A stretch of DNA of 64,000 nt from Chamaelirium japonicum (lineage: Eukaryota; Streptophyta; Magnoliopsida; Liliales; Melanthiaceae), in assembly GCA_947650365.1 (NCBI GenBank), contig OX393551.1:66191094-66255093 (forward strand), given 5' to 3'. Below, in pieces: positions 21,807-51,857 of the stretch; the stretch's first letter is position 1; every line of letters begins with the position of its first letter. The position numbers and the translations under genes were made by a program. The notes beneath the pieces are model-generated. The model saw only the letters and a list, made by a program, of their open reading frames with translations, had not been told where the DNA came from and did not search any database.

Positions 21807-22633
21807 TGTGACAACCAAGATCCAAGAGCTAATAACCAATATCTAAGAGCTAATAGCCAAGACTCATAAGAGGGGGAAAGCTAAGATGGATGAGGTGAGG
21901 TTAAGTGCGGTATACAAGGTCACAAATTAACCCCACATCATCCGGGGAGAAAAAGATTATGCACTATATATATGACATCCCCTCCTTAAACTCAAGATGC
22001 ATTTTAAAGCCATGAGCCATCGGGCAAAATGGATAATATCTTGTATTGGGGCAGTATGTTACATAATACTATTATCAGAGTCGGACCTCCTAGCGGTGGG
22101 GGGATTGATCCCACACGGTGACGTGTCACTCTTAGATGGGTGAATTGTGATGACCAATAGCCAATAGCCAAGACTCCCGAAGCAAGGAAAGTCAAGATGG
22201 ATGAGGTGAGGTGCGATGAGATGAGGTATGATGTCCAAGGCCACAAGTTAGTCCAACATCATATGAGGGAAAAAAGTATTATATGGTTAACATTTAAGAC
22301 ATGTTTTAAAGTCGTGAACCATCAAGCAAAGTGGATAATATCTTGTGTGTTGGGACGGAATGTTATATAATGGTATCAGAGTCGAACTTCATCGTGGTAG
22401 GGGGATTGATCCCACACGGGGACGTGTGAGACCCTTAGGGGGGTGGATTGTGATTGCCAATAATATGTCAATAGCTAAGAGCCAAGAGGCGGAAGGCCAC
22501 ATCGCTTGAGGAGGAGAAAATGATTCTAGACTATATATATGACATACCCTTTTTAACACTCAAGACTTGTTTTAAAGCCGTGAGCCCTTGGGCAAAGCGG
22601 ACAATATCTTGTGTGTTAGGATGGGATGTTACA
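21807..22633 (+). mobile_element. TRIM chain: LTR-internal-LTR-internal-LTR, without 5S module
   Basis: There are three LTRs (21807-22063, 22146-22367, 22449-22633), each starting TGTGA and ending TGTTACA/TGTTATA. Two internal regions of ~80 bp separate them. Each internal region has a methionine-tRNA-type primer site (TATCAGAG after LTR 1; TGGTATCAGAGTCG after LTR 2), a 'gattgatcccacacggggac'-type middle and a polypurine tract ('cttaggggggtggat' before LTR 3). Flanks GGAAG (21802) and TGAAG (22634) suggest one old target duplication around the chain. LTRs match the Cassandra copies elsewhere except that the 5S module is absent: 'ttttaaagccatgagcc' runs almost directly into 'gcaaaatggataatatct'. 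Confidence 0.88.
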
Positions 22634-23244
22634 TGAAGTGAAACCACTTCCTTAGAAGGTCTGAAATAGTTATCTAAAGCTCTATCAAGATTGATCCAAG
22701 TATTTCAGCAGTTTCTTGATTTAAGTATTTGATCAGTTCCTTGATTTAAACATCAGATACGTTTTTGCGGCCAAACATTGGTTTAAGTATTTGATTAGTG
22801 GCTTCACTCAAACTTAAAATTTTTCTTTTTTGGATATCTTTAGGGGTGGCAATTAGCTATCTGATTGGTTGACCGATTGTGATCATAGCAATAATATTTT
22901 CAGAATTTATAAAAAAATCATGAATAATTTGCGAACTTAAAGTCGAGCGTATCGGGATTATACGACAAACTGGAGCATGCTTGAATAACTCTTGCCCTAT
23001 TCACGAATTTTACGAATAATTCACGAACATATATAGTTTTTATACGGTATTTTTTTTCATTATTATAAATATATATTTCGATATCTATTACCACGACAAC
23101 TGTAATATAACATATTTTATGTTTCCGATCTATTCCCGAACTCATTCCTAATTTTTGCGATTATTTCCGAATGCATAATTTGTTACCACGACTGCGATAG
23201 AACAAAGGGTGAGGTTGCATGGTCTATATAACTCCTACACAAGT
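22634..23244. other. Intergenic; one hAT-like end at 22851
   Basis: TAGGGGTGGCAATTAGCTAT at 22851 matches the left terminus of the hAT family but has no partner end nearby. The remainder is AT-rich. Confidence 0.45.
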
Positions 23245-23247
23245 TTA

Positions 23248-23481
23248 GGGTCTGTTTGGTTTGAGGGAGTTGGAACCGGCGTGTTCCAACTCATGCGTGG
23301 GGTACGAACAGAATGAGTTGGAACTCCACCTGAAAACCGTGGGGTACAAACTCATGCGTTTTCTATACAATCGAAATCCACGGAGGAGTTGAAACTCATC
23401 TGGTCGTCTATCTCCGCACGGAACCAAATAGTCGCTTTAGAAAAACACGCGTGTTCCAACTTCCTCCAACCAAACAGACCC
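23248..23481. mobile_element. MITE upstream of the bZIP gene
   Basis: The left end GGGTCTGTTTGGTTTGAGGG pairs with the right end complement GGGTCTGTTTGGTTGGAGGA. The flanking dinucleotide TA is present on both sides (TTA...TAA). It is 234 bp long, with an inner repeat of 'gttccaactcatgcg'. It ends about 290 bp before the TATA box of the bZIP gene. TIRs starting GGGTCTGTTTGG are common in plant MITEs; the superfamily is not fixed by a 2-bp duplication alone. Confidence 0.8.
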
Positions 23482-23772
23482 TAAGAGAGGTTTGATGATA
23501 AATAAAAAATGAGACTTCATTATGCATCACATCTACTTCCATGGCCTGCATTTGGGTCATAACAAACCCTAATCTTCACAAAAACCTTAAACAAGAGAGA
23601 GAGAGAGATAGAGAGAGAGACCTCGTCAGCCTTAACAAACAAGAAATGATGGCCAGACTTAACAAACCAGAAATGCTGGTGCATCCTGAGGATATTCAGT
23701 TTGGAAGACAAAGCAAAAAATCATCCTCAGTGGGTCCGAGGAAGGGGTCATATCAGTATCATATGCTCTCTC

Positions 23773-23780
23773 TATATAAA
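23773..23780 (+). promoter_or_regulatory. Putative TATA box of bZIP gene
   Basis: TATATAAA follows a CT-rich stretch about 750 bp upstream of the chosen ATG. A leader of that length is plausible if a 5'-UTR intron exists: a possible acceptor 'ttctggtttgcag' ends at 24384. The start site is inferred only from position. Confidence 0.5.
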
Positions 23781-24528
23781 AATCCACCCATGGCCCAGAA
23801 CTGGGCCATGTCCTCCTCAAAATGGGCACGAACTGGAGAGGACTGGAACTCCAGCTCTCCATCACTTGGCCCTGTGCCAGTGTCTGGAGTTCCTGCTTCA
23901 GCCAACCATGGAGCCATATGGATCGAGAGATCTGATTCCTGCCATAAGTAGAGTGGGATTTTTGCTCTGTTTGTAATCCTGAGGCTCAGATTCGGATTCC
24001 TCGTGATAGGAATCAGAATCCAGGACAAGATGTCGTAAAAATCATGTTTTTGGCAGTTGGGTCTTGTTCCACATCCTTGTATCTCTCCACTCCTGGATGC
24101 TCTCAATCTTTTTCTTCTGTTTTGATGGCTGGGCCATGGACTCTGTGAGGCTTGAAGCCTGTCTTCTCTGCTTGTAAGCTCTCAACCCTTGTTCTGCCAT
24201 CAGTTGTTCTTGCCGAATCCATTGTCTTGAGGTTCGAATCCTTTGTGGGTCTGCCGGGCTTGTTGGATTCTGTGTTGGAATTGTTGAAACCTGCGACCCT
24301 TTTGATGATTTTGTTTCTGGGGCTCTATTCAAAGGGTTTGTAGGATCATTGGGTGCTCCTTAGTTGTATCCTTCTGGTTTGCAGATTGGGTTCATGGTTG
24401 TTCTGATCAAAAGAGGAGGAGAAAGGAGCATTTCGTGCTTCCCATAGTGGGTGCTAAGAGTTCTGCTTCTGGGTTTTGAGCCTGGGGCTCTAGTTTCTTC
24501 CATTCGATTGAAGAAGAGAAGCCGGTGG

Positions 24529-34743
<10,215 letters not shown>

Positions 34744-35303
34744 CCCACGATAAAGTTCTGTAGATTTGCATTGGGTGTTTCTTTAAATTTTGTTTGAGAA
34801 GAACATATGGTAGCTCTGGTTCTTGAGCTGTCGAACTTTCGTGCTTCTAAAGTGTGTGGAAGCCCTAACATTATTCGCTTGTTGCTTTCGCTGATGTTGC
34901 TGGCTTCTACTTGGGCTTTGTTCTACTGTAAATCCATCTTCCTGTTCTTTGAAATTTTACAGCACCATAGAGTTGGTATTGATATTACAATTGAGTCTTT
35001 GTTCGTCGATCTCTTTTTATAGCATCAAGGGACCCTTCCTTTTCTTGGTTACTATGGTTTCTCATTTTCGCAAGGGTGATGCTATATATACCCCACGAAT
35101 TCCCACAGGCAGCCCTAACTTAAAAAATATATATGTATGTTCCCATTCCGTCACTGGTCTCTTGCTAAGGGCAACCCATGCCCACTGCCCTTCACCGCTA
35201 GCAACCCACGACAGTCCCCCTCCTCCTTAGTCCCTCCCCTTCTTCGTACTCTTACCTTTCTTCTTCCTCCTCCTTTTTCCTTTTTCCTTTGTTCTTCCTC
35301 CTC

Positions 35304-35304
<1 letters not shown>
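34744..35304 (+). other. 3' region of bZIP gene
   Basis: Presumed 3' UTR followed by pyrimidine-rich DNA. No AATAAA was picked out with confidence, so the transcript end is unknown. Confidence 0.5.

Positions 35305-35334
<30 letters not shown>
35305..35334. repeat. C30 homopolymer
   Basis: An unbroken run of 30 C in a CT-rich context (35220-35360). It is prone to assembly error. Confidence 0.9.
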
Positions 35335-35340
<6 letters not shown>

Positions 35341-35831
35341 TCTCCTCCTCTTCCTCCTAGATATAACGACAGTTGGCCATTCCAAGCTGGGTGTGCCTAA
35401 TGTGCATCTAGCCATGGAGGCCAAATGTCTACATGACATTTGGCCACAGCTGGATTGGTCGAGAGTCGTTTGCACAGTAGGAGGAGGAGGGGGACATAGG
35501 AGGAAGAAGAAGGGAAAGTAGAGAGGAGGATGGAGGTGGGGTGATATATGTGGCCGACTGGTGGCGGCTACTGGCAATTTGCATGGGCACAACAGAGGAT
35601 GAAGAAAGAAGGTTGCCTTAGAAGAAAACCTATGTTGCCTTTAGATGGAGATTGCCTTAGGTAAAACACGGACAGTATATAGCCCCACTCTTTCGGTAGT
35701 GTTGACGAGACAGAATCGAGGATTGCCGGTAATTTTATGCATAACCTGAAGCAATTTAAGAATGGTTTTGAAAGGAATAAGTGAATAAGTAAGTTACTTA
35801 GTTGTTGTGCCGTATCTGGCATCTCTTTCTC
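35335..35831. other. Intergenic, nothing recognised
   Basis: GGAGGA-rich stretch at 35480-35540, roughly complementary to the 35240-35300 pyrimidine stretch. No gene. Confidence 0.4.
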
Positions 35832-35982
35832 CACCAGTAGGGTGGTGTTTGGTTAGTTTCCGTCGGGCGGCAGCCGTCTTTTTCCACCTACTGGTGGTTT
35901 TCTATGCTGTGCCGGCATGTGGTGTCTCCCGGCGGTCAATTTGTGACCTCTCTCATCTGATAATACCAAAAAAAAAAAAAAT
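35832..35982 (+). mobile_element. LINE 3' end (family B) with A-tail
   Basis: The segment 'tttccgtcgggcggcagccg' ... 'ccacctactggtggttttct' ... 'gtcaatttgtgacctctctc' ... 'tgataataccaaaaaaaa' recurs at 59240-59367 (+), in part at 49604-49690 (+), and on the minus strand from 61590 to 61488. Shared 3' ends plus an A-tail indicate a 5'-truncated non-LTR element. Confidence 0.7.
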
Positions 35983-36184
35983 TACTAAGTTGTGTCTAAG
36001 AGAGCATATGATACTCTCACTAGAAAACTTTTGAAGTGCCCTAAATGGATTCCACGAGTTTGATAGTCGTTATGGTGTATTTCATAAATGTAAAAGTCGG
36101 GTTTTAAACTTTAAACATTGCTTCCTTGGATTTATAATTTGGTAGAATAATCAGATTTTTTTAATGTGAAAATTCAGTGTCTTG
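35983..36184. other. Intergenic, nothing recognised
   Basis: AT-rich; no signal. Confidence 0.4.
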
Positions 36185-36610
36185 TAGGGCTGCAACCTAG
36201 GTGGCCAACCCGAACCCAACCCGATTTTTCTCGGGCATGGGTTGAGATTTTACAAACTTGATGGGTTGGGTTCAAAAATCCCAACCCGAGTTGTATTTGG
36301 GTTGGGCCTGGATAGGGGTATCAGGTAAGCCAACCCAACCCAACCTTTAAATTGTACTCTAATCCACCTACGGTGTAACAACATACAAAATGATCATCGA
36401 CTATATTTAATTTGCCTAACCATCAAACAACCCGACCCGACCTCACAACCCGACTTATATACAAGCTCAGGCAACCCGAGTTATCCATGTTGAGCTCGGG
36501 TTGGGCTTGGGCAAGCCAACTCCAACTCGACCTCTGGTTGAATTGGGTGTGAGTTAAGGATACAACACCATGGTTGGCTTCGGGTTGACCTCCCAACCCA
36601 CCCAACCTGC
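36185..36610. mobile_element. Degraded hAT-like element, right end lost
   Basis: TAGGGCTGCAACCTAGGTGG at 36185 is a hAT-type left end. It is followed by 'ccaacccgaacccaacccga' and complementary 'gggttgggc' blocks up to about 36610. No matching right terminus was found. Confidence 0.5.
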
Positions 36611-36639
36611 TCAAGTTGAAGCCCAAGCACCTTATGGTG

Positions 36640-36985: not shown

Positions 36986-37009
36986 AAGAGTTTCACTATC
37001 TTTTAAGTA

Positions 37010-37680
37010 ACATACAGATGAAGCAATAATTATAGCAGTTAAAGTAACTCCGAAACCAAGTGAAAGAGTTTCACTATAGGGATAGATTTCTTTAGAAGTT
37101 AGTGTAGAAGATATGGTAAATTAAAATATATTTTGGATAATATTTAATATATTTTTAGTAATCTAAAATATATATTTAGTCATTTAAAATACATTTTAGG
37201 TAACATACAGAAGACGCAATAACCATAGCAGCTACAGTAACTCCGAATCAACGTGAAAGAGTTTCACAACATGACATTGAAGTTACTATAGATGCTATGG
37301 GTATATTAAACTACGCTTGATATAACATTCTACATTTTTTTAGTAATATAAAATACATATTTAGTAATTTAAAATATGCTTTAGGTACCATACAAAGGAA
37401 ACAATATCTATAGCAGTTACAATAACTCCGAAGTCACGTGAAAAAGCTTCACTACAAGATAATTTAAAGTATGCTTTAGATAATGTTTGATGTGATTTTA
37501 GTAATATAAAATATGTATTTAGTAATTTAAAATATGCTTTAGGTAACGTACAAAGAAAGTAATATCTGTTGCAACTACAATAACTCTGAAGTCACGTGAA
37601 AGAGCTTCACTACAAAACAAAAAAAATTCAGAGTTACAGTAGCAGCTACAGTAACTCCGAAAATATTTTGTCATGTAGTA
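37010..37680. repeat. Tandem repeat, ~180-bp unit, ~4 copies
   Basis: Each unit contains 'cagttacagtaactccgaa', 'cgtgaaagagtttcac', 'tttagtaatttaaaatatg' and 'ttaggtaac.tacagaa'. The CG-poor, AT-rich parts and the 'agctacagtaactccg' palindromic part recall the 3905-4470 array. Confidence 0.8.
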
Positions 37681-37787
37681 AAACATTAAGGTGTTGTAGC
37701 AGAAGAATGCATGAATGACGACAATGGACCTAACATTAATTTTTTTTATATTTGGGATGAGCTTTAAAGTTGTCTTAACGATGACTT

Positions 37788-38330
37788 TTTTTTTTGCTAA
37801 CCATTTTGCACTAGCTTATCAAAGGATTACATCAACAATCAGAAACCCATCGAGTATAGCAACAAGGACTGTAGTCACATGTAGCCCGCTACTCTACTTC
37901 AAGGGACAAGTTGGATTGCCAAAACCTAGAGGAGCTTGTAGCCCATGCAAACCCTGCGAGCCAATCAGCCACACAATTTTCTTTCCAACATATGTGCGAG
38001 ATCTAGACACTTGTAAAGAACTGGAGAAGATGCTTGCAGTCAGCAATGAGCAGGGACGATAAGATATCTTTAGACAGTTGGGAGAGAACACATTGTGATT
38101 CATCTTCAATCCAAATCGCATGTCCAGGAAGTAAAGTAGAGGTTGCAAGGAGGCCTTCCCATAGACCCTTGGTTTCCACCACCTGTACAGAAGACGTCAT
38201 TAGAGAAACATAACCAGCATCCAAAAGAACCCCATTTTAATCACAGATGACAAATCCTACACCTGCCAATATATTTAACGGGGACTTATTGTTGCATTGG
38301 GGTCAAGACTTTCATTTCTTGAAAACTTAC
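37788..38330 (-). pseudogene. LINE RNase H domain relic with A-tail
   Basis: The minus strand reads, with one frameshift, GVGFVICD, LLDAGYVSLMTSSVQVVETK, GLWEGLLATSTLLPGHAIWI, EDESQCVLSQLSKDILSS, then a SQGLHGLQAPLG tail. This follows the RVT_3/RNase H-like layout: N-terminal D-G, A/V-E-T-x-x-L-W-E-G-L helix, I-E-D-E/D-S acidic strand, C-terminal helix. A stop and an A-tract (T-run at 37788-37797 on +) end the element. Reverse transcriptase is not attached. Confidence 0.75.
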
Positions 38331-38357
38331 TCAAGAGGTTTTTTTTATTATCTATTA

Positions 38358-39170
38358 GAGCATCTCCAACGGGCTCCTTTGGATTTCTTCCTTCCTTGTT
38401 TTACCAAAAGAAATAAAAAAAGTAGTCAAAAGGGAGCTCCACCAAATTTTCCTATTTTGATATTTTCCTACTCTTCTCCCCAAGTGAGAGAAGCAGGGAA
38501 ACCTAAGAGTAGTGAGCCTCAATTTGCATTGAATGAAAGTCTATTGACATCCTTACTTTCCATAACAGCCCTTGTAAAGATTGTTTTTAGGGTTAATGTA
38601 TGAAAAGTCTCTGACAACAGATCCATCCCATGAACAGGATACCTAAATGTTTCATTTAGCCTAAGGTCCTTGCCTTTTTTGGTAAACCCGAAACTACCCT
38701 CGGTTTAGCCTCCCATCTCTCCCGAGCAGCTTCGGCGATGGTGGCATTCGGTTCGGGGCGGCGAGCAGCTCCGGCCTAGGCCTAGGGTTCATCCCATAGC
38801 CTAGAGATCTTAGGGTTAGGGTTAGGTTCGGTTCGGCGACAATGACGAGGGGCTCCGGCAGCGACGTTCGGTATTTAATGGCGGCGAGCAGCTCCAACGG
38901 GTTCACTAGTTCGATGGCAGGCAAAAGAAAATTTAAAATACAATGGAGGGTATTATCGTCTATAGTATTTCAAAGTCCTTAGGATAAACCGATCTCTTTG
39001 TCAAGGATAGCTCACTAAATTTCCCTTGTTTTTATTGGTCCTGATCATTTTACATAAAAATAAGGAGAGATTAAGGAGTCCATTGGAGTACTCTTTCATT
39101 CCCAGTCCTACGTGACAGTTATAAGCTCTGAAGAATAAGAAAGAATCATAGGATCCCATTGGAGATGCTC
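38358..39170. mobile_element. PIF/Harbinger-like element, TTA duplications
   Basis: GAGCATCTCCAACGGGCTCC at the left and ...CCATTGGAGATGCTC at the right form inverted ends. TTA flanks both (38355-38357, 39171-39173). The 813-bp body includes a GC-rich segment (38690-38900) with 'ttagggttagggttagg', possibly a captured or nested fragment. The minus frame at 38694-38924 has no domain. Confidence 0.75.
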
Positions 39171-39269
39171 TTATACCCTTAACCTGTACCCTATTTACCA
39201 ACTAAAATCTAACCTATAAATTCAAAGCAGCGGCTGGCGGTGGCTATGGCGTCGTCGGCTAAAATCTAA

Positions 39270-39805
39270 CCTACAATGATATAACTTTTATTATGTCATT
39301 GTTGACATAACTTCTATATGTCACTGGTGACATAGCTTATATTATGTCATTGATGACAAAACTTCTATTATGTCACAAATGACATAACTATTATATATCA
39401 CTAGTGATATAGCTCAAGCTTATATGTCACTGGTGATATAACTTCTATATATCACTGGTGACATATCTTATATATGTCAATTGTGATATAGTTTCTATTA
39501 TGTCACTGATGACAACTTCTATTATGTTACTAATAACATGACTTTTATATGTCACTGGTGGTATAGCTCAAGCTTCTGTCACTAATGATGTAACTATTAT
39601 ATGTCACTGGGTGACGTAGCTTCTATTAAGTCACAAATGACATAGCTAAAGCTTATATGTCACTAATGAAATAACTTTTATATGTCACTAATGATATAAC
39701 TTCTATATATCATTGATGACATAGCTTATATTATGTCACTGATGATATAGCTTCTATTATGTCACTGATGATATAGCTTCTATTATCTCACCGATGATAT
39801 AACTT
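39270..39805. repeat. Tandem array of GTCACTGGTGACATA units (left part)
   Basis: More than 15 imperfect ~22-35-bp units of the form 'atgtcactggtgatataact', each nearly palindromic. The array is interrupted at 39806 by the LTR element and continues at 44701-44862. Confidence 0.85.
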
Positions 39806-42190
39806 TGTATGCGCAGAAAAAGATCCGGGTCGTCTTTATTGCAAACACATGAAGATTACAGATACCGGGACCCGGGGGTGGTAAGCCGGGTGCGGCGAAT
39901 ATTTGATCAGGAGATTGTAGGAGAGATCCTCTGGAGGGTCCCTTTGATCTGCGTCTCCACGTGGTATTCGTGCGAGAGCTCTGAAGGGGTTGCCCAGGAT
40001 AGAGGTTTTTACAGGGTGAGGGTTCTTGAGAGGCTAAGGAGTATCGGTCGTTGTTTTTGTCCCTTCCGTGCATTGCGCTTTCTCGGCTAGGCAGTTTTTG
40101 GCTTCGTTCCTCGGTCTTCGTGTTTTCCTTGCTCCTTGCTAGACCTCGGCATCCATGATCGTCGGTTTGCGGCGTCGATCGTGCTTTTACTTTCGGCTTT
40201 TTGCTTCGGGCGTCTGGCTCTGGCTTTGCTTTGGTGTATCTCTGGCGTCAGCGTAGCTTTGGCGTTTAGCACTTGAACGTAGAAGGGGTAGAGACTTGCG
40301 GTACTTTCATTCTTCCGGACTCCATATCGTATCGGCTAGAAGTGCGTTGCTTTGCTCGTGATCCTTCGCAGTTGCTTGGTTTCAGCACGTGTGTGGCTTT
40401 AGCACGAGCGTAACTTTGGCTTTGCTCTGGCTTTAGCTTTGGGCTTTTGCTTTTGCTTTTGGCTTTAGCTTGATCTTCACCATGAATGATAATGGCGATA
40501 TCTAAGAGTCTTCTTTATTCTTCTGGCTTTATTTCGGTGGCGATGGTTGTGCCGTCGGCTTTAACTTCTCTTCTTCTCCGGGCTATTTCGGTATGATCGG
40601 AGTTGAAGTCTTTTTTTGGAGATGGCGGGTGTAGCACCGATCTCTGTGCGATGGATGTGGCGTCGGCTTTGTTTCTCTTCTTCTCCGGGCCTCTTTGGCG
40701 TGATCGGAGTCGAAGGCTTCTTTTGGAGATGGCAAGTATAGCACCAATCTTCGTGCGACGATTGTAGCATCGGCTTGACTTCTCTTCTTCTCCGGGCTTC
40801 TTTGGCATGATTGGGGTCGAAGGCTTCTTTTGAAGATGGCGGGGGTAGCACCGATCTCCGTGCGACGGTTGTAGCATCGGCTTTCGTTGATGAAGATGAC
40901 GGGGGTAGCACCGATCTCCGTGCGACGGTTGTAGCGTCGGTTTTTGTTGATGAAGACGATAGGGGTGGCACCGGTCTTCGTGTGACGGTTGTAGCGTCGA
41001 CTTTTGTTGATGAAGATGACGGGAGTAGCACCGGTCTTCGTGCGACGGTTATAGCGTCGGCTTTTGTTGATGAAGACGGCGGGGGTAGCACCGGTCTTCG
41101 TGCGACGGTTGTAGCGTTAGCTTTTGTTGATGAAGATGGCTGGGGTAGCACCGGCTTCAGGCCTTCTTCTCCAAGCTTTCTTCTTCGTGCGAGGAGTCGA
41201 CGCCTTTGTTGAAGACGATGGGGTGTTGTCGGCTTCGATCTTCTTCTCCGGCCTTTGCTTATGGCGTCTTCGGAGCTGATGAAGATCGTTGGAGATATCG
41301 GGATGATGATGACTCCGGGCCTTCTTCTCCAAGCTTTCTTCTTCGTGCGAGGAATCGAAGCTTTGATCTTTGAGTGCAAGGCTTCTGCTTTGATGAGGAC
41401 TTGATGGGCTAAGTGTTCCCGTAGGATGCGCTTGCCATGCCTCATGAAGCCTCCGATCTTCAAACGTTGGAGCTCCTTTTTGCAGAGCCCTTTCGTCTTC
41501 AGCTTTCGGTCCTTGATGCCTTCCCCCACCCCTTCTATTTATAGGCAAAGGGGGGAGGTTGGGAGAGATATGGCTGAAATCTTTTTGTTTCATCCAATAT
41601 CTCCCTCCATAACCATCAAGATGTGGTTACCTTATTTGGGGGAACCAACCCTGATTTGTTTCCCTATTTTTGTGGGGATGGTTATGGGCATGACGTGACT
41701 TGATCTTTGAAGATTGAGTTGTCATCTTTACACTTTCGGATTGTATGGCGACACGACGTCATCTTGTCCGTCGGATCGAGGGATCGTCGTGGATCTACGG
41801 TCGTGTAGACGTCCATGCCACCTCCCCCCGCATCGAGGCGGTTAGGGTTTTTTTTTTTTTTCTTTTCTTCCCTTTATGGCCGGCCCCACCTCCCAATGGG
41901 GAGGGGGCACGGTTTTCCATGAAGGGGGGGCCGGTGGGTCCCCTTTTTGTATTTGAGTTATGGGTCCAATGGGGCCCGTTTGCTTTGAGTCAGGTCCGCT
42001 TCATATGCGGGCCGTGTTTGCATGCGGGACATTGTGTGCGAGCCGTGTTCACATGCGGGCCATTGTGTGCGGGCCAATTTCGTATGTGGGCCGTTGTGTG
42101 CGGGCCAATTTTGCAAGTGGGCCTTTGTGTGCGGGCCAATTTCGTATGTGCGGGTCGGGTTCGACCCGTGGGCTAATTTCGATGCCCACA
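39806..42190 (-). mobile_element. Family A LTR, 2,385 bp (3' LTR with polypurine tract)
   Basis: On the minus strand the LTR begins TGTGGGCATCGAAATTAGCC at 42190 and ends CTGCGCATACA at 39806. Directly before it (minus strand) is the polypurine tract TTGAGGGGGCATT (42191-42203), so this is a 3' LTR with some internal sequence left. TATA box CCTATAAATAGAAGG lies at about 41534-41548 and AATAAA near 39836-39841. It is longer than the 13021 copy mainly because of extra tandem units: five 60-bp units (40840-41160) and three ~120-bp units (40540-40860). It also carries a 'gtgcgggccaatttcgtatg' minisatellite (41990-42170). Confidence 0.85.
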
Positions 42191-42934
42191 AATGCCCCCT
42201 CAAGTTCGAGTGCGCTCGCGGGAAACGCATAGTGCTTGGACTTGACTTACGTGTTTGCTTGGGATTGATGCCTTTATACGGACTCCCGCCCTTTCGTTTT
42301 CCCCGTCGTTTTGCTAGTACGGGAGACGAAGGGCTTTGGCAGCTTAGAGACGAAGACTCCTTCCAGGGTTTTGGTCTTGTCCCTTGTTACAGGCTTCTTC
42401 TTGCTTCGGAGATGGTGCAAATGTCGACGTCGGCCGCTACGCAAAGTCTGAGGGCGGTAAAGCGACAGGAGGGCGAAGACGACCACGGTGCTCCTCGGCA
42501 GAGTGTCGTCATCGTCTCTTCATTGCGGGATTGCGATGGCGGAGGAGAGTTGTCGCCGCCGATGGTGGTGACGACACAGATGGCGCACCGAGCGGAGGAG
42601 GCGGAGTGGTCGAAGACGCGGTAGGTTCCCTCCTTCTTCCTACTCCTCTTTCTCCTTCCTTCTTCTTTTTTTTTTCTCTTGTTTCTGTTATGAAATGGTA
42701 GTTGCATCGGATCGGGATGCACTCCGGATTAGACCCCTAGATTATGGGATAGGAGATTTACCCGTCTCTATCCCAATAACCGATTATGCCTATATATAGG
42801 GGGTTAAATGAATAACAGTTTTTCCCAACATTCTTTCCCCTTTTTTTTTTCATCTCCGTTTCCTTTTTTTTTACCATCTCCAACCCCACGACCGTCATGT
42901 CAGTTGAGATTGTCCCCCTCCTTTCACGCGTGTT
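42191..42934 (-). mobile_element. Internal remnant of the family A element
   Basis: GC-rich DNA between the polypurine tract and the nested solo LTR. Open frames occur on both strands (to 42624 on +, 42387-42722 on -), but no gag or pol motif is seen. With the nested LTR removed it would run into 44689-44700 and then back into the tandem array. Confidence 0.55.
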
Positions 42935-42939
42935 GATCG

Positions 42940-44683
42940 TGGCTGCAGTCGGCCTAGAGCCGACATAAGGCAAACCATATTCCGGCATAGCCTAACGCAC
43001 ACCACCAAACCTTAGTCGAGTCGGGCGGGAGTCCGACGATGCCAAGCCCTGGCCTAGCACACCAACCCCGACGCTTGATCTCCCCACGCTGTTGATCTAG
43101 CCCCATGAGCCCACACTTGATGTTAGCGGGTCCGATCTTATCGGGTCATGCATGCCGATATGGGTTCGACCGCCTAGGTAAAGTAAAGGCATAAAACACC
43201 CTGTGTAGCCATATGCGCACGAGATCGACCCCATGACGGCGATGATGCGCTACTTAGCGGCCTCGGTTGGCCACTAGTGTGATTCTCGTGTAAACCCCTA
43301 TTTGCATGCTAGTGGCAACAACCGACGCGGGTATGATCGTTTAGTCGGATTAGTATAATTGGACCTTAGTGCGACCCTTGGCGTTGGTAACACTGACTAA
43401 CCAAGACTGTACGATTGGGCATCGTTTTGCGTGCCGATAGACCAATGTCCAATGCCTAAATTTCTTAACTCAACCAACTCGGGTCTAAACCTGTGTTACT
43501 CGGTAGCAAGCAATGACCATAGGCCCGCTGTGTGTGTTTGACAATTCGTGACCGTGTTGACCCTGTTGGAGACGAAGTGGAGGTCGCCTAGCAGAAGCCC
43601 ACCAACCAGGTGACATTTACTTCCTTTGTCGTGGTCTTTGATAGTGAGAAATAAGAACAACTAGGGTAGATATCCATGATACTGCATTTAGGTGCCGCCG
43701 GGCATTACCGCATGTGGTCACGTGGATCCCTCCTTGCATGCAAAGTCACGAGTCCAGCGACGCATACTTTAAAATATTAATAAAATAATCATAATTATTG
43801 CATGGACACTATAATTAGACATTCCCTTAAATTAAACTGTAATTTGAATAAAATAATAATTAATGGCAAGTTTGAATCCCACTCTTTTGGTAGGAGTATG
43901 GGGATCATACCTAAATTGGGTCCCAGGAGAGTGTTTATTTTTATTATATATCATGTGATGCATGGGTTGTGAGTGCGATGCGAATCCCGGGGTAAAACGT
44001 TGAAACTAATTAATCACTGTTTAGCCTTTTCGGTAACTATGTAATAATCTACCTTGTATAAAGATTGGGATCCTATGCACGCAAGGGCCGTGAACCACCC
44101 TACGCGCATAGCTGAAGATCAGATTGAACTAAGGATTCTTTAGTCTAGTTAGTGTTCTGTGATTATTAGTGGTGATGATCCAGCTGAATCCTTTTGGGTA
44201 TGCCTCTCTTCAAGGCCCTAAGCATATGTTAGATCATCCAAAAATATAATAATACATAAATGGCCTAATTGATTAACCATGTAGATAAATCTACCAGGCC
44301 GGTGCAACCGAGTGTTAGGGCGTGAGTGAGATTACTTGGCTTGTCGTTAGAGGCTTGAGTCTTGTGCTCTTTTAGAGGGACTTCTGTAGGTATGTAGTGG
44401 CACCGACATGCCACTCATACTGATATGATAGTCCTTTTAAAGGTCGAGCTTGGTCTTTTCTCTGTTGATAGATTTGTGTTTCTCTGCCTTTAATAAAATG
44501 TTTTTATAAAAATCAAGTTTAAAATATCTTCTCTTGTTTCTCCTCTTCTTTCTCTCATTGTGTGAGAGTGAAATAGAAGCCCGATGAGAACCCCAATTGG
44601 CATAGTTAAGTGACCAGACCCAAAACCCTCTTTTTCTCACCTCATACTCCAGGGATTGATCTTCGGATTTCTGGGGCGTGACA
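42940..44683 (-). mobile_element. Solo LTR, 1,744 bp, perfect 5-bp TSD (probable Ty3/gypsy)
   Basis: On the minus strand it starts TGTCACGCCCCAGAAATCCG at 44683 and ends GACTGCAGCCA at 42940. GATCG is repeated exactly at 42935-42939 and 44684-44688. A TGTCACGCCCC start is typical of plant Ty3/gypsy LTRs. No primer site, polypurine tract or pol adjoins it. It was inserted into the internal remnant of the family A element. Confidence 0.88.
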
Positions 44684-44700
44684 GATCGCCTCGATTAGCA

Positions 44701-44862
44701 TCAATTGATGACATATCTCAAGTTTATATGTCACCGATGACATAACTTATATATGTCACTAGCCGCATAGCTTCTATTATGTCACTGATGACATCTTTTA
44801 TTATGTTACTGATGACATAATTTTTATGTCACAAGAGATATAACTCAAGCTTATATGTCTTA
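44701..44862. repeat. GTCACTGGTGACATA tandem array (right part)
   Basis: The same units as 39270-39805 resume ('atatgtcaccgatgacataa'), showing that 39.8-44.7 kb is an insertion into one array. Confidence 0.85.
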
Positions 44863-45878
44863 GGCAATTATAAGTTCTTTTCATTGTTTTATCATGGGCA
44901 AATCGAAGCCCAACTCGAGCTTGAAACTTTTTGTTTGGGTTAGAATTGAGCTTGGGCTTGGGCTGGGCATCTCGGGTTGGAGTTTGGGTTGGGTTGGGCT
45001 AGGTTAGGATTGAGGATTCAAGTACTTGGGTTAGGCTTGGGATAACCCCTAACTCGACCCAACCCACCCGAGTTGCAGCCGTAATTCATAATGTAGGTTA
45101 ATGTAAATTATTACAGACCCAAATTATAAAATTTAAGGTACTTAGGGTCACTATTAAGTGAGTTTGATGTTGACATTATTGGATGCCATGAACCACCGGA
45201 AGTTTTTTTGCTCTAGTGAGGGGACGCTCCAGATGCTTAGTGATTTTTTTAGACCGTTCCCTAATGTGCAAGAAGAATGGAATCAGTCTGATGGTGTGTA
45301 AAAAGGATATAGGTGACATGCACGAGTCAGGCTGGGTGTAAAGTTTAGATTGGACGGCTCCCTATTCTTCAGTGAACAGTTCAAATGTATCACTAAGCAA
45401 CTGGAGCAATAGTCCAGCAAAAAAAATTGGAAGACTTAGCCATAAGTCCTTTTGAGAAAACCATTTTGAACTAAAGGACAAGCAAAATATGGATTTTACA
45501 CCAAGTCCCTTCCCAAAATACTGTATTACAACAAGTCCCCCCAACCATCGATTTGACTTTTTCAAACCATCCAAATGACAAAAAATATCCTTATGCAATT
45601 TGCTACAAAAAAATCGGTAGGATTTATCGAAAAAAAACCCAATGCAGAGAGTAACAATTACTATAGTGATATGTGTCAACATCCGGAGTCTATATGCTTT
45701 TTATGTACAGCCGCATGTATTGATCAAAACGGATACTTAAAATAAATTAGATATACAAAGGCTTTTCATCAAATTGGAATATTGTTTGTCATTTTCATCA
45801 AATCGATCTCTTGTCAGGGACCTAACACATATTAATCCAAAAAATTCTCTAAACCGTACGATGTCCCAAATGGAGTAA
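44863..45878. other. Intergenic; hAT-like right end at 45083
   Basis: 44880-45083 is 'gggttgggc'-rich and ends GAGTTGCAGCCGTA, like a mutated hAT terminus. The rest is AT-rich. The 106-codon minus frame at 45362-45682 covers MITE-like 'acaagtccccccaacc' sequence and is not a gene. The 3' flank of the RING gene lies at 45700-45878. Confidence 0.45.
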
Positions 45879-46346
45879 TCAGATCCACCAAACATATCGA
45901 ATATAAGCCATGAAAGAGAGAAATGAGCAATCGGCCGCGGCCTCCTCCTCCTCATCAATCTCCATTTCCACAAGCTCCCCCCTCGCTTCCAACGACACCA
46001 AAGGATCTCGACAAAGAGGGCACGTTGGCCGCCGGCACTGCTCGAGCCACATACCCAAGCAAGCACCATGGAAGAGGTGCCTGCATCTTATTTCTCCAAT
46101 CTCCTCCCCTTCCTCGACGTCACGAAGACAGAACACACACATGACTGGCTCCCCCAAACTGTCCGCCCCTCGCTCCCATCGAGCGACTTTGAGTTCCACA
46201 TCATGGCGGGCACGGATTGGGGTGCCCGGCCGCCAAGCGCAATGAGCAAGTAGGAGAGCCCCTTTGATGAGAAGGAATACAATGCTGAAACAAGGGAACA
46301 AGAGGAGGGAAAGGGGTAGAGACAGCAAATGGATGGCTCTCCCCAT
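45879..46346 (-). CDS. Membrane-anchored RING-H2 finger protein (putative E3 ubiquitin ligase)
   Basis: A single-exon gene of 155 residues. It starts MGRAIHLLSLPLSLLLFPCF, giving a hydrophobic N-terminal segment (about 5-35) that probably anchors it in a membrane. A RING-H2 domain follows: C70-x2-C73-x14-C88-x-H90-x2-H93-x2-C96-x12-C109-x2-C112, with the W at 100 and P before the last zinc pair that contact E2 enzymes. All eight zinc ligands are intact. The tail is acidic (EIDEEEEAAAD). The family transfers ubiquitin from an E2 to substrates; small plant members of this layout (RHA/BRH/ATL-like) act in stress and hormone signalling. I prefer the start at 46346 to the in-frame Met at 46424, because a TATA box lies between them. 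The specific substrate cannot be told. Confidence 0.88.
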   Translation of the reverse strand: MGRAIHLLSLPLSLLLFPCFSIVFLLIKGALLLAHCAWRPGTPIRARHDVELKVARWERGADSLGEPVMCVFCLRDVEEGEEIGEIRCRHLFHGACLGMWLEQCRRPTCPLCRDPLVSLEARGELVEMEIDEEEEAAADCSFLSFMAYIRYVWWI

Positions 46347-46393
46347 GGTTGCAGTGGTGGAGAGTAGGGATGCCGACCTTGCGAGAAGCAGCC

Positions 46394-46403
46394 CCTTTAT
46401 ATA
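46394..46403 (-). promoter_or_regulatory. TATA box of the RING-H2 gene
   Basis: TATATAAAGG on the minus strand, 48 bp upstream of the chosen ATG. Transcription would start near 46370, leaving a ~20-25-nt leader and excluding the ATG at 46424. Confidence 0.7.
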
Positions 46404-46602
46404 CTTCAAAGATTGGGTAGACATAGCTCATAAATTTGGAGATATTTAAGAGGATAAGTCTAGCTAGCTAGCTATCCAAATTATTTATTTGTACCACCAA
46501 CTTGAGGTTTTTTAAGCTCATGAGATGAGATGCATGAACCGATGTAATCTTCTATAAACACCCCCATGTACTTCTCTACTTGGACCAATCAAAGATGTGA
46601 TG
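46404..46602. other. Upstream flank of the RING-H2 gene
   Basis: AT-rich with a 'ctagctagctagct' run at 46461-46474. No element defined. Confidence 0.4.
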
Positions 46603-46645
46603 TTTAACCAACGGGTTCTTGGCCTGGTGGTACTTCCTCTCTCCT
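46603..46645 (+). mobile_element. SINE head fragment
   Basis: ACCAACGGGTTCTTGGCCTG followed by GTGGTACTTCCTCTCTCC matches the tRNA-like head (box A TGGCCTGGTGG) of the SINE family. Confidence 0.6.
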
Positions 46646-47454
46646 ATGTTTAAGGGCGGAGCTAACATAGGCCCAGTAGGGACAGCTGCCCACACTGAGA
46701 ATTTTTTTTAAAAAAAGTAATGTTATTTGTACAATCTCAGTCAACAAATTAACACATTGACAATGCAGACCAATGAAACGGAGGTGGGTCTGGTTTGTCA
46801 AAAAAAAAATTAGTAAATATAGTACACTTTCGCCCCTGGAGTTTAACTAAAAGACACTTAACCCCCCTATACTTTAAAAACTACATGTTATCCCCTTCAA
46901 CTCGGTTTTGATCAGATAAAGATTACCAAATGAGAAAATTAAGTAGTTGACAAAAGGGTGTATTGTGCTAACATTTCAAACTTTAGGAAGCCATTTGGAA
47001 TAAAATAAACTGAGGGGTTTAAGTATTTTTGAGCTAATTTTAAGTGGGTAAAGTGTAATTTGCCTTAAAAAAATTGGTGTTCGTCTCTTTCGTTCATCCC
47101 ACGACTACCCACGGTAGACTCGCATAATCTCACGGTTCGAATTGTATTATCCAAGACTCCATCCCTGTTCATTCCAGCCATCCTCTACTCGAAATCTGTG
47201 ACCGACGATGCGATCAGCAAGTGCGGCTCGCCCGTAGCGCTAGCCGAAATCGTATTCTCTCTCTCTCGATAGTTATTCACGATTTTTTGTGTAATGTTTT
47301 TTTTGGATGGAAGATTTTTTTGTGCTTATAAACTGAAAGCAAAGTATTTTTGTAGTCAATTCAAATCCTTTATTGGTAGAAATTGAGTAAAATTTTTAAA
47401 ACCAAGCAAAGGTCGTCCCCACTGGAGTGAATTCTTGGCTCCACCACTACCCAT
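46646..47454. other. Intergenic, nothing firm
   Basis: 'agtacactttcgcccctgga' (46820) and 'ggtaaagtgtaatttgcc' (47045) might be ends of a MITE, but no clear inverted repeat or target duplication was found. Confidence 0.4.
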
Positions 47455-47605
47455 GATGTTCGACTTCCGGTTTGGACACCGTGGAGCGAACTTTTCCTCA
47501 ATCAAATGTTCCTTGTTAATTTGCACGTGGGAATCCTGGCCGTTGATGTCATGTTCACGGGATTATGAAAATAATAAATAACAGTTGCTGACTGCGTCCC
47601 CCCCA
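47455..47605 (+). mobile_element. tRNA-related SINE, 3' part
   Basis: 'gttcgacttccggtttggac', 'gcacgtgggaatcctggccg' and 'ttgatgtcatgttcacggga' followed by 'ttatgaaaataataaataac' align with the SINEs at 55600-55785 and 20985-21172 in opposite orientation. Confidence 0.65.
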
Positions 47606-47957
47606 TTCCAGTAAAAAAAAACAAAATTTGATGTTCATGTGGGAAATATAGGGGAAAAAATATCAAAATGAAATTAAAATGAAAGAAAAAGAGGAGTGCG
47701 GATAATAGTGGTTTACATTATGAGAGGTATAAGGGCAGCGAGGCTGGCTCCGTCGCTGTGTTGTTGACTCCCAGTGGGCTGTACTTATAAACCATGGGGG
47801 CGGGTGACCCTCTTTACTCACTGTTTAATGTATGTTTGCATGCCTACGTGTTTACATTATCACTGTACAATGTGTGGGGTGTACATGTATCACAACTTCT
47901 GAGTTGGCAACCCACCTACGTACCTAGTTGACAATTACATCTGATGAGTTGGTATGT

Positions 47958-48002
<45 letters not shown>

Positions 48003-49075
48003 GCAAATGGGTGATGATCGATCTACAAACGTGTGCTATATATGATAGATCACCATTCATGGGATGGTATTGAAGCCCTTAACTTAGTCGCCCGAACCAC
48101 GGTGGTTCGGATCGTTCAGGTTCCGGCCATCGATATATGTTTTCTCGATCCGATTGGATGGTTTCAGATTGTTAAGATCTACAGGCTACCGAGAGAATCC
48201 CAGAGGGCTCCCATCATAAGGGTTGGGTGATCGAACGGGAGATGACATGTGACGATGGCTAGACCCTGAGCCATGGTGATTATGTGGTTCAGATCGACTA
48301 TTTTAAGTCATGGGTGATAATATTGGGGTTTGCTATTAAAAAATAAATTTTTTTTATATTTTTTTTGTAGGAACTATAAAGGGCTATAATTATTTAATTT
48401 ATCCTTTTCTGAAGAAATCAGAGAAGCAATACAAAAGAAAATGGGCGTGGTCCGTAGAGAAGGGACAAGAGTCAGTACTCTTAAGTGCGGATTGGTTGGT
48501 AGCTGAGAGCATATAGGAAGGGCTAGAGAGAGAAAGAATGGGAGACAATATTTTCTCTCTCTTCGTTTCTTATATAATATGTGAGATGATGAGAGAAGAA
48601 TGTGTTGTGTTTTCTTAAAGGTCCTCTTACCTTCTTCTATGTATAGTTTGGGCAGTTAAAAAACTGATTTTTCCAAATTGGTCCTGAACTTTTGCATAAT
48701 TGTGTATTAACCCTAACAAATTCACTATTTGAAACGCAAATCTGCTGTCGCAATTAGATATGGCTGTCATATTTTTTGCTTCATCATCCACCCCGCAAAC
48801 CACAACCCCTATTTTGACTATTGGTTGGGGTGAAAGCGACTCAACCGTCCGATAGGAGGTGTAACAAATGGCTATGGTTTGCGGGGCAGATGATCGAGTG
48901 GCTAAGGAGACTGCGACATTTAATCGCGATAGAAAATTCGCATTCCACTGTTGGATACCGACCCTGTCAACATACCAAGTTGTCCATATTCCTCCCACCA
49001 TTACCGTAAGGCAAAAGAGTGTCTAGTGTAACTATGGTGATCGAGTACCTATAAGGGCAGCGAGGCTGGCGCAAT
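47606..49075. other. No gene; AG microsatellite and a 21-bp direct repeat
   Basis: (AG)n lies at about 47959-48001. A perfect 21-bp repeat, 'tataagggcagcgaggctgg' plus c, occurs at 47728-47748 and 49050-49070. Frames at 48033-48230 and 48627-49001 show no domain. Confidence 0.5.
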
Positions 49076-49532
49076 TAGGGCTGGCAATTTCGGACCAGGC
49101 ATGAAGTTAGCGGGTCTGGGTCAAGGCTAAACGGGTTCGGGTCGTAAATGGGTTGACACGATAGATCCGTTTAATAAACGGGTCAGGTCCGGGTTTAGGG
49201 CCTGGACACGGTAGACCCGCGAAGACCCGTTTAAAATTCAATAGGTCATGTCGGGTCAGGCCGGGTCGAGTCTACCTGCAATCCGATACTGTAATATATA
49301 GTATCAACAGGTCTATCGGGTTAGGTCGGGTCGAGTCGGATTGGGTCGGATCGGGTCAACTAAATAAACCCATGTGGTAAACGGGTCTACCCGTTTATAA
49401 ATGGGTCAGGTACGGATTTAGGATCTAGACACGATTAGTTAAACGGGTCGGGTCCGGGACTAGGGGTTTTGGACACGACCTGAAACTAGACACGACATGA
49501 ACCCGCCCCGACACGACCCATTGCCACCCCTA
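49076..49532. mobile_element. Diverged non-autonomous hAT element
   Basis: Ends TAGGGCTGGCAATTTCGGAC and ...CCATTGCCACCCCTA; flanking 8-mers GGCGCAAT and CTCTCAAT match at 5 of 8. The interior is 'ggtcgggtc'/'gacccg'-rich, like the other family members. An older copy. Confidence 0.7.
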
Positions 49533-49603
49533 CTCTCAATTGAGCGTTAATGTGCGGAAATAAGCAAGCTTCTTCAAAATAAACATATCACGTCTGTGGG
49601 TGC
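49533..49603. other. Short intergenic gap
   Basis: Nothing recognised. Confidence 0.4.
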
Positions 49604-49690
49604 AGTTATTGTGCTGCTTTCTTATATAGTGCCGGCATGTGACGTCTCGAAAGTCCGATTGTAACCTCCCTCTTGAAAAAAAAAAAAATA
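49604..49690 (+). mobile_element. LINE family B 3' end fragment
   Basis: 'tagtgccggcatgtgacgtc' and 'gtaacctccctcttgaaaaa' match the 3' end at 35900-35982, with an A-tail to 49688. Confidence 0.6.
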
Positions 49691-50427
49691 TTTTTTTATA
49701 AAAATACCTAAAAAAGGAACTTTTTAAGATTTAATAGCCTAATTGCATTGGATTTAGATAATCCCTCACCTACAAATTCTTCTTGACCTTAGACATGAGC
49801 AACACATGATTAATTTGATTTAGGTTTCTCCTTGAATCCATTCTCACAACCCTAAAAGTTTTCAGCACATGATCTTGCGTACCATACAATCGTGGGGCCC
49901 ACTACCCTCAGAGCCTGTTAAGTATTCGCACGCTCTGAGTGCTGGGGACCACTAACCCCATGTACTGGGGCCTACTATCCCATGTCTCTTGAATCGCAAT
50001 GGGCCCCATGGTTGTATGATACAACGGTTGTGCTGAAAATTTTCCCCCTCACACCCACATGTTCATCTCCTAGCTGTGCCACTAGCAGTGATCAAAAGGT
50101 TAAGGTGTACTTGGGATTCTGAAAGAGTAATCTATCTCAAGGGGGCCAGGAATAGTAAAGTTTCTTTTCCGGCTTTTCGGTTTTCTTTTTATGCTTTTCC
50201 GGCTCTCTCTCTTTCATGGTCCTCTTTCATGACCTCAGCATAACGGGCTGCTGTGCAATCACACGAATCACCTCCGCCATCAGATCTAGATCCTCATGTG
50301 CCCCTAGCCTCTTGAGATTAGAGATTAAATCTCGGCCAAGGATTTGGTCGCGATCCAAATCAACGGACGTCCGTCGCTTCCGACTGGCATCCGCACCCTC
50401 GGATCTACCGCGAGCAACGTCGGGTTC
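49691..50427. other. Intergenic, nothing firm
   Basis: An 84-codon minus frame at 50227-50481 runs from TRIM LTR sequence into unassigned DNA. No domain. Confidence 0.4.
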
Positions 50428-51165
50428 AATAACGCTTGCCCCAAATACACAATATATTGTCCGCTTTGCCTGTGCCCGCATGAGAACTTCCCCGGGAGGT
50501 CACTCATCCTAGTACTACTCTCGCCCGAGCATGCTTAACTACGGAGTTCTTATGAAATCCATAGCGGTGCACGGTTTTAAAATGTGTCTTTTATGTTTAG
50601 GAAGGGAAATTATATAAATAGCTCATAATCTCCTTTTCTCCAAGCGATGTGGGACTAACTCGTAGCCTTGTACACCTCACCCCACCTCATCCATCTTAGC
50701 GTCCCAGCCTCAGGAGTCTTGGCTGTTGGTTATTGGTTATTGGATCTTGGTCGTCACAATCCACCCCCCTTAGGGCTACACGTTCTCGTATAGTGTTAGA
50801 TCCCCTCATTCTGAGGAGAACCGGCTCTGATATCATTTAATAACATCCGCCCCAAACACATAAGATATTGTCCGATTTGCTTGTTCCCGCACGAAAACTT
50901 TCCAGGGAGGTCACCCATTCTAGTACTGCTGTCGCCCGAGCACGTTTTACTACGGAGTTCTTACAAAATCCATAACGGTACGTGCATGGTTTTAAAATGC
51001 ATCTTCAATGTTTGGGAGGGGAAATATAAGTATCTCAGGATCTCCTTCTCTCTAAGCGACGTGGGGCTAACTCGTGACTTGTACCTTACATCACCTCACG
51101 TCATCCATCTTAGCATCCCAGCCTCAGGAGTCTTGGCTCTTGGCTATTGGATCTTAGTTATCACA
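50428..51165 (-). mobile_element. Complete Cassandra TRIM with 5S modules
   Basis: Minus orientation. The 5' LTR is about 50841-51165 (starts TGTGATAACTAAGATCC). The primer site is TGATATCAGAGCC (50823-50835), complementary to initiator Met-tRNA. The polypurine tract CCCTAAGGGGGGTGGAT is at 50759-50775, and the 3' LTR runs 50758 down to about 50428. Both LTRs carry the 5S module (50882-50993, 50472-50573). There is no coding capacity, so mobility would depend on an autonomous partner. Confidence 0.9.
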
Positions 51166-51170
51166 ATAAT

Positions 51171-51857
51171 TGTAACGACCAAGAGTCAATAGCCAAGAGC
51201 CAAGACTCCTGAGGCTGTGATGCCAAGATGGATGAGGTGAGGTGAGGTGTATAGGGCCACCGAGTTAGTCCCACATCGTCTGGAGAGAAAGAGATCCTGA
51301 GCTACTTATATAATTTCACATCTCAAACAAAGAAGATGCGTTTATAACCTTGCGCCGCTACGGATTTTGTAAGAACTCCGTAGTTAAGCGTGCTTGGGCG
51401 AGAGTAGTACTAGAATGGGTGACCACCCTAAGAAGTTCTCGTGCGGGTATCGACAAAGCGGATAATATCTTGTGTGTGTGGGATAGATGTTACAAAACAG
51501 TATCAGAGCTGGTTCTTCTCGGGATAGGGGGGTCTAACCCTACACGAGGACGCGTAACCCTAAGATGTTGGATTGTGACGACCAAGAGCCACTAGCCAAG
51601 AGCTAAAACTCATGAGGCTGTGATGCCAAGATGGATGAGACGAGGTGAGGTGAGGTGTACAAGGTCATCGAGTTAGTCCCACATCGCCTGGAGAGATGGA
51701 GATCCTGAACTACTTATATAATTTCCCCTCCCAAACATAGAAGACGCTATTTAAAACCGTGCACCACTACGGATTTCGTAAGAACTCCGTAGTTAAGCGT
51801 GCTCAGGCGAGAGTAGTACTAGGATGGGTGACCACCCTGTGAAGTTCTCGTGCGGGC
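51171..51857 (+). mobile_element. Cassandra TRIM with 5S modules, 3' LTR truncated
   Basis: The 5' LTR is 51171-51494 (TGTAACGACC...GATGTTACA), followed by primer site CAGTATCAGAGCT (51498-51510). A ~60-bp middle is next, and the 3' LTR starts TGTGACGACC at 51574. The 3' LTR breaks off inside the end of the 5S module, at about 51857. The 5S cores 'gtagttaagcgtgcttgggc' (51380) and 'gtagttaagcgtgctcaggc' (51790) keep the internal promoter boxes. It lies five bases from the preceding TRIM, head to head. Confidence 0.9.

What the first reader, a model, noticed from the sequence alone, without database searches (positions are those of the whole stretch)
21807..51857. One TRIM family with two LTR forms: with and without a 5S rRNA module
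LTRs at 4-312, 50428-51165 (two) and 51171-51857 (two) carry a ~90-110-bp 5S-derived module between 'ttttaaagccgtg' and 'aatatcttgtg'. LTRs at 21807-22633 (three) and 29358-29762 (two) share the LTR start, TATA region, LTR end, primer site, internal region and polypurine tract. At that point they have only ~15 nt ('agccatcgggcaaa'-like). Cassandra elements are described as universally bearing 5S DNA; I know of no described sister form lacking it. The 5S-less form could be the ancestor that gained the module, or a derivative that lost it. Either would show how a pol III control region entered a pol II LTR.
Basis: partly seen in the sequence, partly recalled or inferred. Interest (0 to 1): 0.78.

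Follow-up and report, generated by a model that had tools for sequence, protein, structure and literature searches.

The report
Cassandra mobile elements with empty twin
A plant genome holds two versions of one tiny mobile element, alike in layout except that one carries a piece of a ribosomal RNA gene in its ends and the other has nothing there, so the step by which such elements gain or lose that piece can be studied directly.

Summary
Confirmed, and extended to the genome. In this monocot one TRIM chassis exists in two forms. The Cassandra form has 5S nt ~29-110 in each LTR (box A-N18-box C in 5 of 5 window LTRs, 0 of 5 in the others). The 5S-less form has there a 16-nt slot without 5S residue. 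LTR parts on both sides and the internal region are homologous. Two genome searches with 5S-less LTRs gave 97 slot-spanning matches (some places twice), 69 loci, none long enough to hold a 5S module. The 19 LTRs read (15 loci) have slots of 16 nt (17) or 15 nt (2): an old, formerly mobile subfamily, not scattered decay. Sampled 5S copies stand on one side of the tree (87/92, below the tool's star), two old copies next to a young burst (L004: identical LTRs, 5-bp TSD). Gain of 5S by the empty chassis is favoured, not shown: no outgroup. Here the LTR itself is shared.

The parts
4..312 (+). 5S-bearing (Cassandra) LTR, no partner inside the window
   Evidence: 5S match at Rfam threshold
200..274 (+). 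5S-derived module of that LTR, 3' end missing; box A-N18-box C at 221-263
   Evidence: (against a recalled plant 5S)
21807..22064 (+). 5S-less LTR 1 of a three-LTR array
22015..22031 (+). empty slot of LTR 1 (17 nt by the cut)
22065..22145 (+). internal region, primer site and polypurine tract decayed
22146..22368 (+). 5S-less LTR 2
22317..22333 (+). empty slot of LTR 2 (17 nt)
22369..22443 (+). internal region, primer site TGGTATCAGAGTC
22444..22634 (+). 5S-less LTR 3 (5' part eroded); most of the query
22583..22599 (+). empty slot of LTR 3 (17 nt)
29340..29448 (+). 5S-less LTR, 5' part lost in an AT microsatellite
29449..29527 (+). internal region of the second 5S-less element, primer site decayed
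29528..29762 (+). 5S-less LTR; query
29712..29728 (+). empty slot (17 nt)
50428..50758 (-). 5S-bearing LTR of a two-LTR Cassandra element
50479..50560 (-). 5S-derived module; box A-N18-box C at 50498-50540
50759..50838 (-). internal region, primer site and polypurine tract
   Evidence: boundary read by eye
50839..51165 (-). 5S-bearing LTR; 5S match 50890-50961, box A-N18-box C at 50909-50951
51171..51494 (+). 5S-bearing LTR of a second Cassandra element, head to head with the first; 5S match 51361-51443, box motif 51382-51424
51495..51573 (+). internal region
51574..51864 (+). 5S-bearing LTR cut off after the 5S module; 5S match 51770-51852, box motif 51791-51833

Best explanation
The window holds two lineages of one non-autonomous LTR retrotransposon (TRIM) family that share LTR, primer site, internal region and polypurine tract and differ by an occupied or empty slot between the TATA region and the LTR end. 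The empty form would be transcribed from its pol II TATA region; the filled form also carries the 5S internal control region and so could recruit pol III. Both would be copied by the reverse transcriptase of an autonomous element through the same primer site. Shown: the two forms, the uniform junction in the copies read, the multi-locus spread of the empty form, the age of the window's empty arrays, and the youth of the best-matching filled copies. Inferred: mobilisation in trans, promoter use, and the direction, which I take to be a single acquisition of a truncated 5S copy (nt ~29-110) by an empty-slot ancestor, followed by expansion of the filled lineage and decline of the empty one.
For: Homology on both sides of the slot. 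Slot-spanning genome matches: 46 of 46 and 51 of 56 (some places in both), largest length difference 9 and 30 nt, 69 loci on 17 contigs, window included. One junction in the 19 LTRs read, no 5S residue in the 4 tested. 5S copies on one side of a branch, 87/92, the old copies L049 and L068 stepwise next to the young 5S clade; L068 reads GTGAGTC before the 5S part, close to GTGAGCC of the empty form, where most young copies read GTGCGCC or GTGCACC. Window empty arrays are old: LTR-LTR K2P 0.29-0.51 against 0.14 and 0.20 in the window's 5S elements and 0 in L004. Template switching is visible: L002 joins another family's LTR to Cassandra at the primer site.
Against: The tree has no outgroup; direction rests on a midpoint root. 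With L049 as the only old 5S copy the split was not clean (holding the empty copies together: p-AU 0.41), the first tree gave 42/35, and 87/92 is below the tool's star. Only two old 5S copies entered the trees. Cassandra is reported from ferns and angiosperms (PMC10853983, PMC10886601), so a gain within this host's lineage would need a second origin or a very old split. No transcripts were examined.
Confidence: 0.55

Rival explanations
1. The empty form is a derivative of Cassandra that lost the whole 5S module once, then spread by pol II transcription.
For: Cassandra is reported as ancient and widespread (PMC10853983, PMC10886601). The empty copies stand on one side of a branch (42/35; 100/99, young 5S copies only; 87/92), and holding them together is not rejected (p-AU 0.41), as one loss would give.
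Against: The loss would have had to be exact to a few nt on both sides, leaving no 5S residue in the 4 LTRs tested and one 15-16-nt slot in the 19 read. The empty copies are the more diverse set in the tree, though the 5S copies were picked as best hits and so are biased to young ones. The old 5S copy L049 agrees with the window's empty copies at 11 of 18 diagnostic sites and with young 5S copies at 6.
Confidence: 0.25
2. Module transfer: the 5S cassette came from an already existing Cassandra of another family by template switching between packaged RNAs, making a new Cassandra on the empty TRIM chassis.
For: Would reconcile an ancient Cassandra with a single local gain. Chimeras exist here: L002 at the primer site and composite LTRs in L022, L024 and L032 joined in the slot flanks. 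PMC10853983 discusses modular uptake.
Against: No donor Cassandra with a different chassis was seen in the sequences held; none was searched for in the whole genome, and other plants could not be searched.
Confidence: 0.17
3. The empty copies are independent decay deletions of Cassandra copies.
For: Old copies do carry small deletions, such as about 21 nt at the end of the module in the LTR at 4-312.
Against: Same junction in the 19 LTRs read at 15 loci; 69 loci with matches too short for the module.
Confidence: 0.02

Closest known systems
Cassandra TRIM lineage (Kalendar 2008, recalled, not held; Kalendar 2020 PMC7215508, passages seen; Maiwald 2024 PMC10853983, abstract, first part of Results and one Discussion section read)
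   Same: 5S-derived region with box A and box C in each LTR, Met-type primer site, polypurine tract, no coding region, tandem arrays
   Different: The 5S-less form fails the defining feature although its LTR is otherwise homologous
Cassandra-like TRIM without 5S promoter of Carduoideae (PMC10853983, same sections)
   Same: TRIM without 5S, beside Cassandra in two of the three species named, shared internal region, TATA box, proposed precursor or derivative
   Different: There the LTRs differ in sequence and length and the TATA box is 48 nt from the LTR start; here LTR homology continues on both sides of the slot and TATA motifs start 89-161 nt from the LTR start (3 of 4 rows not cut by the microsatellite, one of them eroded at its 5' end)
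TRIMp3 / Helenus and Ajax (Kojima 2024, PMC10886601, abstract and Discussion read)
   Same: TRIM LTRs with an acquired pol III promoter; origin by SINE insertion into a TRIM LTR is proposed there
   Different: No empty counterpart on the same chassis is described in what I read
Canonical plant TRIM families (Gao 2016, PMC4717578, passages seen)
   Same: small non-coding LTR elements, tandem arrays common; it states that no 5S was found in other TRIM families
   Different: In the passages seen it does not link any family to Cassandra by LTR sequence

Membership tests
Cassandra | 5S-derived region in each LTR | tested here: met
   5S form: 5 of 5 window LTRs; old copies L049 and L068
Cassandra | 5S-derived region in each LTR (applied to the 5S-less form) | tested here: not met
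   0 of 5 window LTRs; 4 of 4 tested at shuffle level; 97 slot-spanning genome matches too short to hold it. It is therefore not filed as Cassandra
Cassandra | Met-type primer site next to the LTR | tested here: met
   Read: TGGTATCAGAGC in L004, changed at one or two positions in the two window 5S internal regions; in the 5S-less form TGGTATCAGAGTC in one of three internal regions, decayed in two. Assignment to tRNA-Met follows PMC10853983 and recall
Cassandra | 5-bp target site duplication | tested here: met
   L004: GCTGC on both sides of an element with identical 330-bp LTRs (one element). 5S-less array: GGAAG/TGAAG, 4 of 5 (read); second 5S-less locus not testable. That 5 bp is typical is recalled
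Cassandra | pol III transcription of the LTR | not testable with these tools
   no expression data
TRIM | short LTRs, very short internal region, no coding capacity | tested here: met
   5S-less: LTR rows 191-258 (those not cut by the microsatellite), internal 75-81; 5S: LTR about 310-331 (one more cut off), internal 79-80 (and reading). No room for a coding region
Carduoideae Cassandra-like TRIM | LTR different from Cassandra in sequence | tested here: not met
   LTR parts left and right of the slot are homologous to those of the 5S form

The most novel reading that the evidence does not exclude
The empty-slot lineage is the surviving progenitor chassis of this Cassandra. Its slot is a preferred joint for promoter swapping, filled once by a truncated 5S copy; composite LTRs in L022, L024 and L032, with a second, box-B-like insert followed by the same downstream flank, would be a third filling of the same slot.
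Probability: 0.25. Interest if true: 0.82.

Novelty: new variant of a known kind. Interest (0 to 1): 0.6.

Why it matters
How a pol III gene fragment entered a pol II LTR is open: single or multiple origin of Cassandra is debated in PMC10853983. An empty-slot and a filled-slot LTR with shared flanks in one genome, each at many loci, fixes the breakpoints, supplies a candidate pre-insertion state and makes gain against loss a matter of rooting one tree.

Tried and rejected
Looking for relatives outside this genome: a pattern scan of viral contigs gave 6 matches that are chance hits by their flanks; a gapped junction pattern in genome contigs (prokaryotes) gave 0; a translated alignment of the junction against the protein collection had 2 candidates and no match at E 10. 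A text search for the flank motif listed 7 papers, one of them with a grape small RNA of similar sequence (PMC3353164, passage seen), too short to count. From memory only, eudicot TRIMs with a similar flank and no 5S exist; this comes from no call and carries no weight here.

A sample of 20 stretches of 10 kb, spaced by hand over C1-C4, gave one LTR, the old 5S copy L049, and no 5S-less copy; it is too small for an estimate of density. A tRNA reading of the extra insert was not confirmed: ARAGORN found none in L022, L024 and L032 and Rfam none in L024.

Rows dropped: one search left out 13 of 82 LTRs whose slot motifs were not recognised; one search left out 5 of 96, among them L049, put back by hand, and the 5S LTR at 51574. 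The 5S rows are one in three of the young copies besides the window's, and those had been picked as best hits to a window copy. The matches come from the best 40 scored candidates of 640 and 1241.
Full report
What is there. The window lies at C3:66191094-66255093 of a 1.52-Gb assembly. An ABI5-like bZIP gene in it has monocot proteins, palms first, as its best named hits, so the host is taken to be a monocot; the species was not identified. Five LTRs carry 5S-derived sequence and five do not. The box A-N18-box C motif, as printed in PMC7215508 (passage seen), occurs five times in 64 kb with up to 3 mismatches allowed, once in each 5S LTR, and in none of 100 shuffles.

Same chassis. The alignment and a profile of the 5S-less copies show homology of the LTR left of the slot (E 2e-35 to 3e-26 for the five 5S LTRs) and of the right part with the internal region (E 4e-18 and 2e-16 for the two units that have both). 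Internal regions are 57-75% identical between forms in nine pairs. The primer site TGGTATCAGAGC is intact in L004 and changed at one or two positions in the two window 5S internal regions; it is recognisable in one of three 5S-less internal regions and decayed in two. TATA motifs start at LTR positions 89-161 in three of four 5S-less LTRs not cut by the microsatellite, and at 137-145 in the five 5S LTRs of the window, one of which has a further one near its end. One 5S-less LTR and the old 5S copy L049 have none.

The slot. Against a recalled plant 5S sequence, the 5S LTRs match nt 29 or 30 to 110 in 5 of 7 copies aligned, with shorter matches in the other two. In 5S-less LTRs the slot reads like AGCC-TTC-GGGCAAAGC: 16 nt in 17 and 15 nt in 2 of 19 LTRs from 15 loci, the two being neighbours in one element. 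No 5S residue was found in the 4 LTRs tested: best local scores of 7-10 against a shuffle mean of 8 and 95% point of 10.

Genome-wide. A 5S-less LTR from each window locus was searched in the genome. One search scored 40 of 640 candidates and gave 46 matches, all spanning the slot; one search scored 40 of 1241 and gave 56, of which 51 span it. These 97 include the window copies and some places found twice. Hit lengths differ from the query by at most 9 and 30 nt, too little for a 5S module of about 100. Together they are 69 loci on 17 contigs, C1 to C12 among them; as lower bounds. Apart from the queries themselves, identity of the slot-spanning matches to the query is 68-86%. That is identity to one old query, not between copies, so young copies are not excluded by it; two matches 18 kb apart on C5 have equal scores and may be a local duplication. 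The search is by similarity to 5S-less LTRs, so it does not give the ratio of the two forms. The 5S form had more first-look candidates (4887; 3497 for an old 5S query) and has young members: L004 has two identical 330-bp LTRs and a 5-bp TSD.

Tree of the shared parts, slot left out. With young 5S copies only, the split is 100/99. With the old 5S copy L049 added it is not clean: L049 falls among the 5S-less copies with weak support and holding those together is not rejected (p-AU 0.41). With a second old 5S copy, L068, all 29 5S rows stand on one side (87/92, not starred), in the order L049, L068, young clade. The first tree, with 5 empty LTRs, gave 42/35. At 18 sites where the window's empty copies and young 5S copies differ, L049 agrees with the empty form at 11, with the young at 6 and with neither at 1. 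L068 reads GTGAGTC before the 5S part, close to GTGAGCC of the empty form, where young copies mostly read GTGCGCC or GTGCACC. I read this as the two old 5S copies lying nearer to the empty chassis than the young ones do. That fits gain by an empty ancestor and does not exclude loss, since no outgroup could be had.

How it may work. Inference: the empty form depended on its TATA region and pol II; the filled form can use pol III as well, or instead. Neither has room to code for its own enzymes, so both need an autonomous partner. L002 joins the end of another LTR, also present in L030 and as a relic near window 44673, to Cassandra's internal region at the primer site, which is what template switching between co-packaged RNAs would leave. 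In L024 and L032 an extra piece of about 120 nt sits in the LTR between two copies of AAGACGCGTT, and most of it is also in L022; its inner end repeats the flank GGACAATATCTTGTG that follows the 5S module. It contains a box-B-like stretch (by eye), but ARAGORN and Rfam call no tRNA. Such joints are a plausible route for filling or emptying the slot.

Against what is known. PMC10853983 (abstract, first part of Results and one Discussion section read) reports, as a first case, Cassandra-related elements without 5S in Carduoideae, sharing part of the internal region but differing in LTR sequence and length, and discusses precursor against loss. Five searches of the held library for Cassandra and related terms listed, by titles and abstract starts, no other report of a 5S-less sister; most subscription papers are not in that library, and two Cassandra papers asked for were not held. 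What appears new here is that the LTR itself is shared on both sides, with one empty junction in all copies read and dozens of loci.

Noticed in passing
L024:614-735 and 1157-1278, L032:1136-1256, L022:919-1021 (minus, partial): Cassandra LTRs with an extra ~120-nt insert: box-B-like stretch followed by a second copy of the LTR flank GGACAATATCTTGTG. Stand-alone relatives could not be searched.
   Followed up: partly
L002:about 1320-1503; also L030 near 135; window near 44673: Cassandra internal region and 3' LTR joined at the primer site to the LTR end of another retrotransposon family; in L030 that LTR end is followed by the same primer site. Possible partner or template-switch donor.
   Followed up: partly
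window 50428-51864 (= L001); L017, L018, L022, L026, L032, L033: Cassandra LTRs in both orientations within one locus: 7 of 28 loci listed (L005 counted with L004).
   Followed up: no
L008, L022: Long tandem Cassandra arrays, at least seven LTRs in L008, the last cut by the end of the locus.
   Followed up: no
L051:about 6660-6994: A different small TRIM: two LTRs of about 128 bp with TTAGCCCCACATCG and a similar primer site, found by a weak profile match.
   Followed up: no
window 58997-59087: MIR2275 microRNA precursor match (71.5 bits).
   Followed up: no
window 24448-25365: Open frame of an ABI5-like bZIP transcription factor gene, probably its first exon.
   Followed up: no
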